Positions 37,022-58,774 of a stretch of DNA of 64,000 nucleotides are shown here, one piece after another (the first letter of the stretch is position 1; each line of letters opens with the position of its first letter). The DNA is from Marivirga tractuosa DSM 4126. Lineage in GTDB: Bacteria; Bacteroidota; Bacteroidia; Cytophagales; Cyclobacteriaceae. A program made the position numbers and the translations under genes. The notes beneath the pieces are model-generated. The model did not search any database. It saw only the letters and a list, made by a program, of their open reading frames with translations, and was not told the DNA's origin. The stretch lies in NCBI RefSeq assembly GCF_000183425.1, contig NC_014759.1, positions 1,674,001 to 1,738,000 of the forward strand, read 5' to 3'.

Positions 37022-37224
37022 CTTTTTTTAGCCTTATAATTACTGTAATCCATCGCCCGCAACAGAAATAGTATGGACATGGATTTCATAGGATTAAAAG
37101 CAATAATCGTGGTTATAATGAAATGAAGGAGGAATTCCTGCAAAAACAGGAAAGGAATCAACCCCTGAAGAATGGTGTCCGAGACGCCATTTTTCAGTCA
37201 GGTTGGTTACTTTAGTGGAGTTGG
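37022..37224. repeat. Right copy of 203-bp inverted repeat IR-B
   Basis: Exact reverse complement of 34663-34865. Its last 10 bp are the 3' end of the tmRNA gene. Confidence 0.95.
37215..37224 (+). other. attR core (ssrA 3' end)
   Basis: GTGGAGTTGG here encodes the 3' strand of the tmRNA acceptor stem. It is a direct repeat of the core at 13912. Confidence 0.85.
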
Positions 37225-37614
37225 AGGGATTCGAACCCTCGTCCGGATAAGGAAACGATGCATCTTCTACATGCTTAGTTACTAATTAGGTTTTCGAGCC
37301 TGTTATGGAAAGTAACAGTCCTGTTGCAGGCCTTAGCTATTTGAGTTTCGCAATGGCTTAATAGCATCACCACGCTAGTTTCTCCTTTCGACACTCCTTG
37401 ACCGCTCCCGGAAAAACGAAGGAACGAGGAATGTGGCTGGGGAATCCTTTTGGGGACTCAACCCTTAAAGCTTTATCTTAATAAATTAAGATTATGCAGC
37501 CATGGCGTAATTAGATTCGCCAATTATAGTTGGAATGAATTACTTAAGGATGTACATTCTCCACCCTGCATGCTAATACATAATTCACACTTACCGTCAA
37601 TACCGGTCAACCCC
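37216..37614 (-). ncRNA. ssrA: Transfer-messenger RNA (tmRNA)
   Basis: About 399 nt. The 5' end GGGGTTGACCGG pairs with the 3' end CAACTCC(A) in a 7-bp acceptor stem with the G-U pair at position 3 seen in other tmRNAs. The T-arm is GAGGGTTCGAATCCCTC. CCA is not encoded. The tag frame is at 37521-37492 on the minus strand and reads GESNYAMAA then TAA, close to the Cytophaga tag. It rescues stalled ribosomes and tags the peptides for proteolysis. The island is inserted in its 3' end; the mature RNA sequence is preserved. Confidence 0.96.
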
Positions 37615-37822: not shown

Positions 37823-37830
37823 TACCTTTG
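37823..37830 (+). promoter_or_regulatory. -7 box of ffs promoter
   Basis: TACCTTTG matches the Bacteroidota TAnnTTTG -7 element, a few bases before the first base of the SRP RNA hairpin. The -33 partner is weak. Confidence 0.6.
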
Positions 37831-37833
37831 CAT

Positions 37834-37926
37834 CGGCAAATCGGCACGACCAGCTCCTGCTGAACTCCCCCAGGACCGGAAGGTAGCAAGGGTAGGCGGT
37901 CGTAGCGGTGCGATGTTGATTTGCCA
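37834..37926 (+). ncRNA. ffs: Signal recognition particle RNA, small bacterial type
   Basis: About 93 nt. The conserved apical domain is visible: CCCCAGGACCGGAAGGTAGC with its GGAAG tetraloop region and the asymmetric AGCA side. The ends GGCAAAT and ATTTGCC close the long hairpin. A TACCTTTG -7 box (37823-37830) lies just upstream. The RNA binds Ffh and drives co-translational membrane targeting. Confidence 0.93.
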
Positions 37927-38312
37927 TTTTTACTTCCTTTCCATTTCTACCTACCATTTTTTTCCTAATTATTCTCGCTTGTAGGTTCAATATGTCAGAC
38001 ATTAGTATTTGAACACTGGTAAACCAAGCTCGTATTGATTTGCCCTCAAAAATTAAAACTATCGGTCAATTCTGAATGTCAGACATTCGAGCTTCTTCAA
38101 GAAATATTAATGCACAGACATTTTCAATGTCTGACATAAGCACTGATTCCACTTTGGTAGTTTATGGTAATTACTAAATAGATGATTGCCCGTTTTTATT
38201 CTTTGTTGTTTATCAGTCCGCATAACAAAGCTGAAAGGTTTCTAATAAGACATTTTCAGATTAAAACATTACCTTTGCGCAAGATTAATTGAACTCAAAA
38301 ATAACCTTACCA
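37927..38312. promoter_or_regulatory. Upstream region of the transaldolase gene with three identical-core palindromes
   Basis: ATGTCWGACAT occurs three times, at 37992-38002, 38076-38086 (extended to the palindrome GAATGTCAGACATTC) and 38127-38137. A TACCTTTG -7 box lies at 38270-38277, followed by the transaldolase start at 38313. The palindromes look like binding sites for a dimeric regulator of the downstream gene or of ffs; the protein is unknown. No gene is seen in the 386 bp. Confidence 0.55.
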
Positions 38313-56677: not shown

Positions 56678-57415
56678 CTAAGGAATGTTCACCGGCTCTC
56701 TTTGCAGCCTATCCTCAATCACTTTCTCAATATGAGGAAGTGAGCTATATAATTGCTCGTAATCATCAATAATAAAGTATTTGGTCTGGAATTTATCCTT
56801 TCTGTAACTGCTATCTATTATAGCTTCCACATTATAATCAAAATGTTCTGGCTCATCCGAAATAGAGAATTTTGTTTCTCCCGGAGAAGAAATAATCCCT
56901 GCTCCATAAATTCTTAAATCCCCTTCTTCTCTAATCAAGCCAAATTCAATGGTAAACCAGTAAATTCTACTTAACAAATGGATAGCCCATTCATTATCCA
57001 AATGCTTTAACCCAATTTTAGCCAATCCTTGCAAGAAGTCAACAAAAGGCTGGTTTGCCAGCAATGGAATATGACCGAATACATCATGGAACATATCAGG
57101 TTCTTCTAGGTAATCCAACTGCTCACGAGTTCTTAACCAGGTTGTAGCAGGGAAAATCCTGTTGCTTAGCAGCTCGAAAAATTTATCATCATCTACTATA
57201 CCTGGTACAGCAGCCACCTGCCATCCAGTTAATTCCTTCAGGTGTTTATTTGTTTCCACAAAATTAGGAATAGCCTTTTCAGTGAAATGAATTTTATCAA
57301 TTCCATCTACAAACTCTTTAGTGGCTACTTTCTTGATATTTTGAAATTGTCTCCCGAAAAGGATTCCCCAGACTTCTTGGTCTTCAGTTGTGTAATTGTC
57401 ATAAATTTGCTCCAT
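56678..57415 (-). CDS. phhA: Phenylalanine 4-monooxygenase
   Basis: A 245-aa bacterial-type (no regulatory domain) aromatic amino acid hydroxylase. The iron ligands are H110 and H115 in DMFHDVFGHIPLL and E157 in WFTIEFGL. It turns phenylalanine into tyrosine using O2 and a tetrahydropterin. The length fits the monomeric bacterial enzymes. It is preceded by a leader ORF with five Tyr codons and a terminator (57459-57602), so its expression is probably controlled by tyrosine supply. Confidence 0.95.
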   Translation of the reverse strand: MEQIYDNYTTEDQEVWGILFGRQFQNIKKVATKEFVDGIDKIHFTEKAIPNFVETNKHLKELTGWQVAAVPGIVDDDKFFELLSNRIFPATTWLRTREQLDYLEEPDMFHDVFGHIPLLANQPFVDFLQGLAKIGLKHLDNEWAIHLLSRIYWFTIEFGLIREEGDLRIYGAGIISSPGETKFSISDEPEHFDYNVEAIIDSSYRKDKFQTKYFIIDDYEQLYSSLPHIEKVIEDRLQREPVNIP

Positions 57416-57458: not shown

Positions 57459-57492
57459 CAAAAAAAAGCCCGATTCCATTGGAACCGGGCTT
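57459..57492 (-). terminator. Attenuator terminator upstream of phhA
   Basis: On the minus strand AAGCCCGGTTCC pairs with GGAATCGGGCTT (12 bp, one G-U) around loop AAT, then eight T. It lies between the stop of the leader ORF and the phhA start (57415). Confidence 0.9.
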
Positions 57493-57518
57493 GGTATATT
57501 TTCTATTTGAAATTTGTC

Positions 57519-57602
57519 TTACATCATATGCATAACACTACCATTACCGATTCCTGTCGGGGATTGATAATAGTAATAATATGTGTTGTGCGTGAAATTC
57601 AT
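57519..57602 (-). CDS. Tyr-rich leader peptide of phhA
   Basis: A 27-codon ORF: MNFTHNT, then five Tyr codons (TAT TAT TAC TAT TAT, residues 8-12), then QSPTGIGNGS and VMHMM, stop at 57519-57521. Five Tyr in a row just before a terminator and a Tyr-synthesis gene is the standard layout of ribosome-mediated attenuation. When charged Tyr-tRNA is scarce, the ribosome would stall here and an antiterminator could form. I could not prove the antiterminator by eye. Confidence 0.8.
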   Translation of the reverse strand: MNFTHNTYYYYYQSPTGIGNGSVMHMM

Positions 57603-57607
57603 TTTGA

Positions 57608-57638
57608 CAAATGTAAAACGTCTTATTTTATAATCAAA
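57608..57638 (-). promoter_or_regulatory. Promoter of the phhA leader
   Basis: TTTG (57638-57635), 19-bp spacer, then TACATTTG (57615-57608): a full match to the Bacteroidota -33/-7 consensus. Only five bases separate the -7 box from the leader ATG, so the transcript would start at or within a few bases of the start codon (nearly leaderless). The promoter lies just after the dnaN stop. Confidence 0.8.
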
Positions 57639-57649
57639 GGAAAAATTAA

Positions 57650-58774
57650 TTAAACGTAATTATTCAACATCACCGGCATAACCAATAGTAAGATATCTTC
57701 GTTCTCGTCCATATCAGAAGGGAATAATAAACCAGCTTTATTTGGTGCTGACATATCGATACTTACTTCTTTGCTATCCAGATTATTTAGCATTTCTACT
57801 AAAAACTTAGCATTAAAGCCAATTTCTATATCATCACCTTGATGCTCACATGCCATGATTTCATTGGCCTCATTAGAGAAATCTAAATCTTCAGCAAAGA
57901 TTTGCAATTCACTTCCGTTGATTTTCAAACGCACCTGATGAGTGGTTTTATTAGCGTAAATGCTAATCCTTTTCAATGAAGACATGAACTCCTGACGGTT
58001 GATAGTCAATTTGATATTGTTCTCTGCAGGAATTACATTTTCGTAATCAGGGAAACGCTCATCTACCAATCGGCAAATCAATTTGATATTGTTGAATTTG
58101 AAATAAGCATTGGACATATTGAATTCCACTGCAACATTTACATTCTCCGCTGGTAAGCTGTTCTTCAATAAGGATAATGCCTTTCTAGGGATGATGATGC
58201 CCGTTCCTGAATCAGAAGCTACATCTACCCTTCTGTAACGAATCAAACGGTTACCGTCAGTTGCTACGAAAGTCGTATTGGTTTCATCAAACTTCACATA
58301 AACACCACCCATAGCTGGACGTAATTCGTCATTGCTGGTAGCGTAAATGGTATGATTAATAGCAGTGGCTAAAACATCTGCTGAAATATCTACTGTGTCA
58401 GGATTCTCAACTTCCTGTACTTTAGGGAAGTCTGTAGCATTCTCTCCTGCTAGTTTATAACGACCATTATCAGAGCTAATTTCGATGCTGTATGTTTCCT
58501 CGTCAATAGAGAAAGTCACAGGCTGCTCTGGAAGGTTTTTCAAAGTATCCATCAAGATCCTAGCTGGAACGGCAATGCTTCCGTTTTCAGATGATTCCAC
58601 ATCAATCTCAGTAATCATGGAAGTTTGCAAATCCGAAGCCGTGATTGTCAAAAGACCATCTTGAATCTCAAATAAGAAATTCTCTAAAATAGGCACCATG
58701 GGATTGGTTGAAATCACCCCATTGATGGATGAAATTTGCTTTAATAATGCAGATGAGGATACTAAAAATTTCAT
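57650..58774 (-). CDS. dnaN: DNA polymerase III beta subunit (sliding clamp)
   Basis: A 374-aa clamp with three similar domains, of normal length. It starts MKFLVSSSALLKQISSINGV and includes TTFVATDGNRLIRYRR near 170-185; the end LLLVMPVMLNNYV matches the conserved PM(R/L) tail. It encircles DNA and tethers the replicative polymerase and other clamp-binding proteins. It is not beside dnaA here, which is common in Bacteroidota. Its promoter is seen at 58869-58898. Confidence 0.96.
   Translation of the reverse strand: MKFLVSSSALLKQISSINGVISTNPMVPILENFLFEIQDGLLTITASDLQTSMITEIDVESSENGSIAVPARILMDTLKNLPEQPVTFSIDEETYSIEISSDNGRYKLAGENATDFPKVQEVENPDTVDISADVLATAINHTIYATSNDELRPAMGGVYVKFDETNTTFVATDGNRLIRYRRVDVASDSGTGIIIPRKALSLLKNSLPAENVNVAVEFNMSNAYFKFNNIKLICRLVDERFPDYENVIPAENNIKLTINRQEFMSSLKRISIYANKTTHQVRLKINGSELQIFAEDLDFSNEANEIMACEHQGDDIEIGFNAKFLVEMLNNLDSKEVSIDMSAPNKAGLLFPSDMDENEDILLLVMPVMLNNYV

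What the first reader, a model, noticed from the sequence alone, without database searches (positions are those of the whole stretch)
57459..57638. Five-Tyr leader peptide and terminator in front of phhA: tyrosine attenuation of phenylalanine hydroxylase
Seen: on the minus strand, a full TTTG-N19-TACATTTG promoter, a 27-codon ORF with TAT TAT TAC TAT TAT at codons 8-12, a 12-bp GC-rich stem with loop AAT and eight T, then phhA. Known: ribosome stalling at runs of the regulatory amino acid controls biosynthetic operons. Inferred: tyrosine, the product of PhhA, controls its synthesis through this leader. I know of no described case for phenylalanine hydroxylase.
Basis: partly seen in the sequence, partly recalled or inferred. 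Interest (0 to 1): 0.88.

Follow-up and report, generated by a model that had tools for sequence, protein, structure and literature searches.

The report
Tyrosine attenuator before phenylalanine hydroxylase
In front of the gene that turns phenylalanine into tyrosine, these bacteria carry a tiny gene with a row of tyrosine codons followed by a transcription stop signal, which probably lets the cell make the enzyme only when tyrosine runs short, and relatives whose operon also makes histidine have histidine codons mixed into the same row.

Summary
A Tyr- or Tyr/His-run leader followed by a terminator precedes phhA in 62 of 183 distinct loci, against 1 of 3660 shuffles. Under a relaxed criterion it also occurs in 13 of 31 phhA loci of other orders, against 1 of 3100 shuffles. 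The RNA just past the codon run can pair with the terminator's 5' arm; this beats shuffled segments (fraction at most 0.05) in 50 of 65 loci. A simulated ribosome stalled on the Tyr codons raises this antiterminator from 0.04 to about 1.0. New finding: leader codons track operon content. At least two His codons occur in 55 of 58 leaders whose phhA is followed by his genes, and in 2 of 23 others. Within Marivirga, species that keep phhA-his read HYYYYH, while the window's clade, without his, reads TYYYYYQ. It works like a trp/his-type ribosome-mediated attenuator. My searches found no tyrosine-specific one, none for phenylalanine hydroxylase and none for Tyr plus His. Response to tyrosine or histidine is inferred; no expression data were available.

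The parts
57635..57638 (-). TTTG, -33-type promoter element
   Evidence: consensus TTTG / TAnnTTTG of the Bacteroidota primary sigma factor as given in PMC7366714 (passage seen)
57608..57615 (-). TACATTTG, -7-type promoter element, 5 nt before the leader ATG: start of transcription would fall on or next to the ATG (leaderless or nearly so; inferred)
   Evidence: T[A/G]nnTTTG ends 4-11 nt before the ATG in 31 of 69 leaders, and 3-12 nt before 194 of 7266 other ATGs of these loci
57519..57602 (-). leader peptide ORF, 27 codons, MNFTHNTYYYYYQSPTGIGNGSVMHMM
   Evidence: counterparts in relatives
57567..57581 (-). regulatory codons 8-12, TAT TAT TAC TAT TAT (Tyr x5)
57536..57578 (-). protector hairpin (1:2): the Tyr-codon RNA pairs with the RNA just downstream when no ribosome covers it
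   Evidence: minimum-energy fold
57547..57554 (-). antiterminator strand GGAATCGG, 12 nt after the last Tyr codon, complementary to the terminator 5' arm
   Evidence: duplex -13.6 kcal/mol against -8.2 shuffled, fraction 0.027; pairing probability 0.04 without and 1.0 with a ribosome stalled on Tyr8
57466..57492 (-). intrinsic terminator hairpin, 12 bp, loop AAT
57460..57467 (-). run of eight T that closes the terminator
56678..57415 (-). phhA, phenylalanine 4-monooxygenase, the controlled gene
   Evidence: PF00351, NF008877 and TIGR01267 over cut-off
57650..58774 (-). dnaN, upstream gene on the same strand (context, not part of the switch)
   Evidence: TIGR00663

Best explanation
A ribosome-mediated transcription attenuator that senses tyrosine supply. 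Transcription starts at the TTTG/TACATTTG promoter next to the leader ATG and a ribosome follows the polymerase. With enough charged tRNA-Tyr the ribosome passes the five Tyr codons, the Tyr-run RNA and the following RNA form hairpin 1:2, the terminator 3:4 forms and transcription stops before phhA. When tRNA-Tyr is short the ribosome waits on codons 8-12; this leaves GGAATCGG free to pair with the terminator's 5' arm (2:3) as soon as that is made, the terminator does not form, and phhA is transcribed to convert phenylalanine to tyrosine. Where hisH-hisA-hisF(-hisI) have joined the operon behind phhA, the leader carries His codons too and should answer to shortage of either amino acid. Shown by sequence or computed: ORF, terminator, antiterminator, their recurrence in relatives, and the tie between His codons and his genes. 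Inferred: transcription start, stalling, readthrough, the signal.
For: Anatomy. Leader plus terminator in 62 of 183 distinct phhA loci, 1 of 3660 shuffles; under a relaxed criterion 66 of 183 against 1 of 3660 shuffles, and 13 of 31 loci of other orders of the class against 1 of 3100. Antiterminator: mean -14.3 kcal/mol against -8.2 for shuffled segments; shuffle fraction 0.05 or less in 50 of 65 loci, 0.1 or less in 59 of 65; own arm better than the mean of differing foreign arms in 58 of 65 (means -14.3 and -11.1). Stall simulation. His codons: at least 2 in the best 10 codons in 55 of 58 leaders with his genes behind phhA, 2 of 23 without; mean 2.9 against 0.6. Marivirga: two species with phhA-hisHAFI read HNHYYYYH and HYYYYYH, four without read HNTYYYYY, and in the window genome hisHAFI lie about 2 Mb away. 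Fulvivirga sediminis: phhA-aminotransferase-tyrA, leader YYYYYYY. phhA beside hmgA (homogentisate breakdown): 0 of 7 loci with leader (two families only). 40 of 110 genomes with true phhA have no PF02153 prephenate dehydrogenase over the cut-off, so PhhA may be their tyrosine source.
Against: No expression data. In the fold of the complete leader the terminator wins in every state tried, so the switch must be kinetic, as in trp. A ribosome parked at the stop codon still allowed the antiterminator at 0.71, so repression would need quick release or another position. Foreign 5' arms also pair fairly well with the segment (-11.1), and with the 5' arm alone the own arm won in only 48 of 65. The window genome also has TyrA, HPPD, an HmgA-like protein below the TIGR01015 cut-off and a PhhB-like protein, so tyrosine is not made by PhhA alone there and PhhA may also serve breakdown. 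phhA does not replace TyrA across the order: 70 genomes have both, 40 phhA only, 41 PDH only, 43 neither; the two go slightly together (odds 1.8, p 0.04, not corrected for descent). 32 of 89 loci in a his/aro/trp/tyr setting show no leader by this method. L140 and L146 have hisH behind phhA but no His codon in the run and L165 has one; L200 and L204 have two His codons and no his gene found. Shared descent: on supported branches 2 independent pairs for the His tie (on average 1.7 concordant, 0.0 opposite), 6 on all branches; the sign test cannot reach 0.05, so the Fisher p of 3e-14 is inflated.
Confidence: 0.88

Rival explanations
1. The hairpin is simply the terminator of dnaN and the small ORF is chance; phhA has its own promoter further down.
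For: dnaN ends only 47 nt before the leader ATG on the same strand.
Against: Leader and terminator stand together in front of phhA behind different upstream genes (dnaN, aroF, others); in 14 of the 64 leader-bearing loci with a mechanical ORF of 120 aa or more upstream, the nearest one is on the other strand. Nothing in a simple terminator asks for a Tyr/His run or for an antiterminator. By eye no TAnnTTTG element lies between the hairpin and phhA.
Confidence: 0.05
2. The Tyr run is kept for its RNA (UAU/UAC repeats pairing with GUAAUGGUAGUG), not for its amino acid; the switch is worked by an RNA-binding protein or a ligand.
For: In the window the Tyr-codon RNA does pair with downstream RNA over 13 bp.
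Against: Other leaders keep the residues with different RNA (YVHHSYH, YHSYYYH, YYWY, YYYY) and both codons of each amino acid are used over the 69 leaders (TAT 138, TAC 95, CAT 118, CAC 53); His joins Tyr where his genes follow. No Rfam family of a bacterial cis-regulator matches at its cut-off over the leader.
Confidence: 0.05
3. The leader acts on translation of phhA or by a nascent-peptide arrest rather than by transcription termination.
For: Flavobacteria lack Shine-Dalgarno sequences (passage of PMC9723704), and how tightly their ribosomes follow polymerase is not known to me; leader C-termini share residues in places (GIGNG, RNGS).
Against: The hairpin is closed by a U run that ends 44 nt before the phhA ATG; the antiterminator competes with the terminator, not with the phhA start; the shared C-terminal residues lie over the antiterminator strand, so RNA can explain them.
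Confidence: 0.06
4. It senses histidine or total Tyr/His/Asn/Asp decoding (queuosine-type tRNAs) rather than tyrosine.
For: His codons are common in these leaders; one leader has HHHH with a single Tyr (L036); Tyr, His, Asn and Asp tRNAs share the queuosine modification (recalled).
Against: His goes with his genes; leaders without his genes are Tyr runs. Asn and Asp did not strike me as enriched in the runs, by eye; not counted.
Confidence: 0.06

Closest known systems
trp, his and pheA leader-peptide attenuators (his recalled; E. coli trp and pheA seen in a passage of PMC11802643)
   Same: short ORF with regulatory codons, protector 1:2, antiterminator 2:3, terminator 3:4
   Different: Tyr codons; target is phenylalanine hydroxylase; Bacteroidota-type promoter almost on the ATG; no Shine-Dalgarno seen by eye
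AroR leader of Corynebacterium glutamicum, Phe-Tyr-Phe (passage of PMC11802643)
   Same: leader peptide with a Tyr codon before an aromatic pathway operon
   Different: that review says it responds to Phe limitation and that Tyr availability does not affect it; here the run is Tyr only
Two candidate uORFs with Phe and Tyr before shikimate genes (figure legend in PMC6429828); uORFC-13-1 before aroF, thought to sense Phe (passage of PMC8632094)
   Same: predicted uORF attenuators of aromatic genes
   Different: shikimate genes rather than phhA; no Tyr/His switch in the passages seen
Predicted attenuators before tyrA operons, taken from Merino's database (passages and part of a table in PMC1173090)
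   Same: attenuation proposed for tyrosine-making operons
   Different: tyrA, not phhA; the passages seen do not name leader peptides with Tyr codons
Bacteroid-trp motif RF01692 (table row in PMC2864571) and leader-peptide clues before amino acid operons in Flavobacterium psychrophilum (passage of PMC9723704)
   Same: attenuation-like leaders in Bacteroidota
   Different: neither passage names phhA or tyrosine; RF01692 did not match the window
thr and ilv leaders with two or three regulatory amino acids (recalled)
   Same: one leader answers to several amino acids made by its operon
   Different: here the two amino acids belong to unrelated pathways that share an operon

Membership tests
ribosome-mediated transcription attenuator (trp/his/phe type) | short ORF with clustered codons of the regulated pathway's product | tested here: met
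   translation itself not shown
ribosome-mediated transcription attenuator (trp/his/phe type) | intrinsic terminator between leader ORF and first gene | tested here: met
ribosome-mediated transcription attenuator (trp/his/phe type) | antiterminator that excludes the terminator and is freed by a ribosome stalled on the codons | tested here: met
   (computed only)
ribosome-mediated transcription attenuator (trp/his/phe type) | ribosome at the stop codon favours termination | tested here: inconclusive
   antiterminator still 0.71 in the pre-terminator transcript
ribosome-mediated transcription attenuator (trp/his/phe type) | readthrough rises when the amino acid is limiting | not testable with these tools
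   needs RNA-seq or reporter
Rfam amino acid leaders (Trp_leader RF00513, Thr_leader RF00506, Phe_leader RF01859) | score at or above the gathering cut-off | tested here: not met
   23.7 of 41, 19.3 of 55, 14.4 of 55 bits
T-box riboswitch | match to the Rfam T-box family | tested here: not met
   no T-box among the matches at gathering in the window nor among the 24 matches up to E = 10 over the leader
bacterial phenylalanine 4-monooxygenase | equivalog cut-off of NF008877 / TIGR01267 | tested here: met
   276.3 of 247 and 269.5 of 264.75 bits

The most novel reading that the evidence does not exclude
The phhA leader is a rewritable two-amino-acid sensor: a class-wide tyrosine attenuator that gained histidine codons where hisHAF(I) stand behind phhA and shed them again in the window's Marivirga lineage after the his genes left, all on a nearly leaderless leader transcript. 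It would be the first tyrosine-specific leader-peptide attenuator and the first Tyr plus His one that I know of, and would make evolution of attenuator specificity directly readable.
Probability: 0.7. Interest if true: 0.82.

Novelty: new variant of a known kind. Interest (0 to 1): 0.72.

Why it matters
It says that many Bacteroidota regulate PhhA as a tyrosine-making enzyme, although the enzyme is often discussed for phenylalanine breakdown; 40 of 110 phhA genomes of the order lack a detectable prephenate dehydrogenase. It would add tyrosine to the amino acids sensed by leader peptides and shows, within one genus, regulatory codons changing together with the genes they control: a natural experiment on how attenuators are retuned. 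It is testable with ordinary reporters in harmless culturable strains.

Tried and rejected
Terminator of dnaN: rejected, see rivals. Known RNA family: none at cut-off over the leader. Rarity of the Tyr run as evidence: dropped, since TAY x5 occurs 5 times in the genome. Duplex test against the 5' arm alone was weaker (own arm better than the mean of foreign arms in 48 of 65), because in several clades the loop seems to take part; repeated with arm plus loop, so the second form was chosen after seeing the first. Idea that PhhA is the only tyrosine source in the window species: rejected, TyrA is present. Idea that phhA and TyrA exclude each other: rejected, they go slightly together. Idea that hisH in the window genome has its own His leader: no terminator or His run found in the 400 nt before it; hisG has a His-rich upstream ORF without a terminator by my finder.

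Rows chosen or dropped: of 208 loci with phhA, 183 remained after removing those with identical 150 nt upstream or under 150 nt of upstream sequence. The 69 leaders are the 62 strict ones plus seven that I added by inspection (L074, L093, L165, L090 without a detected terminator; L027, L036, L105 with a run of four and a terminator). Left out: L069, L078, L130 (run of five, no terminator) and L150, L151 (run of four, no terminator). L038 (contig ends after phhA) was left out of the His test. The 81 rows are the other 68 plus 13 other-order leaders, of which nine came and four (L242, L252, L254, L266) I read by eye; the relaxed finder then found the same 13. L109, which also passed the relaxed finder (YYY), was not among the 81. 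One search used the 65 of 69 with a detected terminator. The 80 named loci are the best 80 of 570, so Cyclobacteriaceae are over-represented. 'No his gene' means none found by tblastn with Roseivirga queries in the stretch held (for the 13 other-order loci about 2.4-2.6 kb downstream; for those of the own order at least about 1.4 kb). In one search the genome lists were typed from the tables; seven weak partial phhA hits and six PF02153 hits below the cut-off were taken out, and some of the 40 genomes are incomplete (as low as 62%). Pair-type counts are taken on computed duplexes and lean towards pairing.

Full report
Observation. On the minus strand between dnaN (57650-58774) and phhA (56678-57415) lie, in order, TTTG-N19-TACATTTG (57638-57608), five nt, a 27-codon ORF MNFTHNTYYYYYQSPTGIGNGSVMHMM (57602-57519), a 12-bp hairpin with loop AAT (57492-57466) ending in eight T, then 44 nt to phhA. 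phhA passes the equivalog cut-offs for bacterial phenylalanine 4-monooxygenase. The leader folds far better than its shuffles (z -5.09, 0 of 200). By its nearest named relative the genome is a Marivirga: M. sericea, PhhA 97% identical.

Conservation. I collected 80 named loci (best 80 of 570) and phhA loci from genomes of the same order (117 of 194 genomes with a match), fetched further stretches, and compared 183 distinct upstream regions. A short ORF with at least five Tyr/His in eight codons and a terminator within 80 nt is present in 62 of 183; shuffles of the same regions gave 1 of 3660. In the six Marivirga loci the 36 nt before the leader ATG differ, but TAnnTTTG stands 5 or 6 nt before the ATG in all six, and TTTG at the -33 place in four. 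Of 31 phhA loci from other orders of the class, 9 show leader and terminator under the first criterion used there and 13 under a relaxed one, for which shuffles gave 1 of 3100; the runs read YYYYYP, YYYYQ, YYNYY, YYWY and the like. So the Tyr leader is not a local curiosity but is widespread in the class.

The switch. Between the codon run and the terminator lies a segment that resembles the terminator's 3' arm and pairs with its 5' arm (GGAATCGG with CCGGTTCC here). Across 65 loci this duplex averages -14.3 kcal/mol, shuffled segments -8.2 and foreign arms -11.1; 50 of 65 reach a shuffle fraction of 0.05 or less, 59 of 65 reach 0.1, and 58 of 65 pair better with their own arm than with the average foreign one (with the arm alone, 48 of 65). 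The pairs occur in several forms over 58 distinct antiterminators; these counts are taken on computed duplexes, so they show variety, not proof. The duplex begins within 1-17 nt of the last Tyr/His codon of the run, about where a stalled ribosome would leave it free. With a stall imposed on Tyr8 or Tyr12 the antiterminator forms with probability 1.0 in the transcript that has not yet made the 3' arm; without a ribosome it is 0.04 because the Tyr-run RNA folds onto the downstream RNA. A ribosome at the stop codon gives 0.71, which speaks against a simple repression step, and the finished RNA ended in the terminator in every state tried, so the choice must be kinetic.

Operon content and codons. 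In Roseivirga, most Algoriphagus loci, Echinicola, Cesiribacter and others phhA is followed by hisH, hisA, hisF and often hisI (families confirmed on a Roseivirga locus), and trpB-trpA-aroF often precede it. There the leader mixes His with Tyr: YHYHYYH, YYYHYYH, YVHHSYH, in one case HHHH. Where no his gene follows, it is Tyr: YYYYYYY before phhA-aminotransferase-tyrA in Fulvivirga sediminis, YYYYY, YYCYYY, YYYY elsewhere. With the other-order loci, at least two His in the best ten codons occur in 55 of 58 leaders with his genes and 2 of 23 without. The clearest case is inside Marivirga: M. aurantiaca and M. atlantica keep phhA-hisHAFI and read HNHYYYYH and HYYYYYH; the window species, M. sericea, M. 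arenosa and one MAG lack the his genes there and read HNTYYYYY, followed by Q instead of H. In the window genome hisHAFI sit at C2:3780677, about 2 Mb from phhA at C2:1730681. Exceptions: L140, L146 and L165 (hisH behind phhA; no, no and one His codon) and L200 and L204 (two His codons, no his gene found). Shared descent limits the statistics: 6 changes of operon state and 7 of codon state on the tree, only 2 supported independent pairs.

Role of PhhA. An attenuator with Tyr codons makes sense if the cell treats PhhA as a source of tyrosine. In line with this, phhA stands near his, aro, trp or tyr genes in 89 of the 183 loci, 57 of them with the leader, whereas none of the 7 loci near hmgA has it (5 in one family of the order, 2 in one family of another order). 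40 of 110 genomes with true phhA lack PF02153 over its cut-off, among them two genomes of the Roseivirga group g6 (G119, G132) with leaders. Against this, phhA and PDH do not exclude each other: they go slightly together (odds 1.8, p 0.04). The window genome itself has TyrA, HPPD, an HmgA-like protein and a PhhB-like protein, so there PhhA is an extra route and may feed breakdown too.

What it is. It works like a trp/his/phe-type attenuator and meets most defining features that sequence can test (the stop-codon state is inconclusive); it is not a member of any Rfam leader family at cut-off. Seven paper searches aimed at phhA, Tyr codons or Tyr leaders (open-licence PMC text only) found no Tyr-specific leader attenuator and none for phhA; I judged most hits from the listing. 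The nearest are AroR (Phe-Tyr-Phe, said not to answer to Tyr; passage of PMC11802643), uORFs with Phe and Tyr before shikimate genes (legend in PMC6429828), predicted attenuators before tyrA operons (passages of PMC1173090) and general hints of leader peptides in Bacteroidota (passages of PMC9723704, and PMC7366714). A 2010 survey knew no leader-peptide system outside Proteobacteria and Actinobacteria before its own Firmicutes case (passage of PMC2965389). A study of Actinobacteria names T-boxes, not attenuators, for tyrosine (passage of PMC1262725). Subscription papers such as Vitreschak 2004 were not readable, so an earlier mention there cannot be excluded.

The nearly leaderless leader. A T[A/G]nnTTTG box ends 4-11 nt before the leader ATG in 31 of 69 leaders, against 194 of 7266 other ATGs (3-12 nt); 26 of 69 also show a -33-like element. 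Transcription would then start at or beside the ATG; 5' UTRs under 10 nt are about 3.7% in Bacteroides thetaiotaomicron (passage of PMC7366714). This is inferred from the box position, not mapped.

Noticed in passing
L177, L179-L183 (family f13 of the order), upstream of phhA-like genes: A different recurrent leader, e.g. MNQTAKCFCLNIRPVVDGVGLYCRYGS, without a Tyr run; in L177 a segment is perfectly complementary to the terminator 5' arm (GGAGTCGGGCT / AGCCCGACTCC, by eye). Signal unknown.
   Followed up: no
G000 C2, upstream of hisG (L224; seen): Upstream ORF MNNRTTHILLKQNASQAFHAVHVFHHSSF rich in His before hisG-hisD-hisC in the window genome, with a TACATTTG box but no terminator by my finder.
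   Followed up: partly
L169-L171, L174-L176 (family f19): A terminator-like hairpin directly before phhA (about -80 to -50 in L169-L171, L175 and L176; another hairpin at -120 in L174) without a Tyr ORF.
   Followed up: no
L101, L108, L128 (family f4): Similar short ORF MAEAHSFA/MAEAHTLF followed by a terminator before phhA.
   Followed up: no
L065: The same leader (NPTPRTYVHHSYYHLQ) with terminator lies in front of another mechanical ORF that separates it from phhA.
   Followed up: no
G000 C2:4012-5172 (L222): HmgA-like protein far below the TIGR01015 cut-off but over the PF20510 cut-off; 119 of 194 genomes of the order match the TIGR01015 model, none over its cut-off.
   Followed up: partly
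window 37213-37614 and 37827-37930: tmRNA (RF00023) and a Bacteroidales small SRP RNA (RF04183) close together on opposite strands.
   Followed up: no
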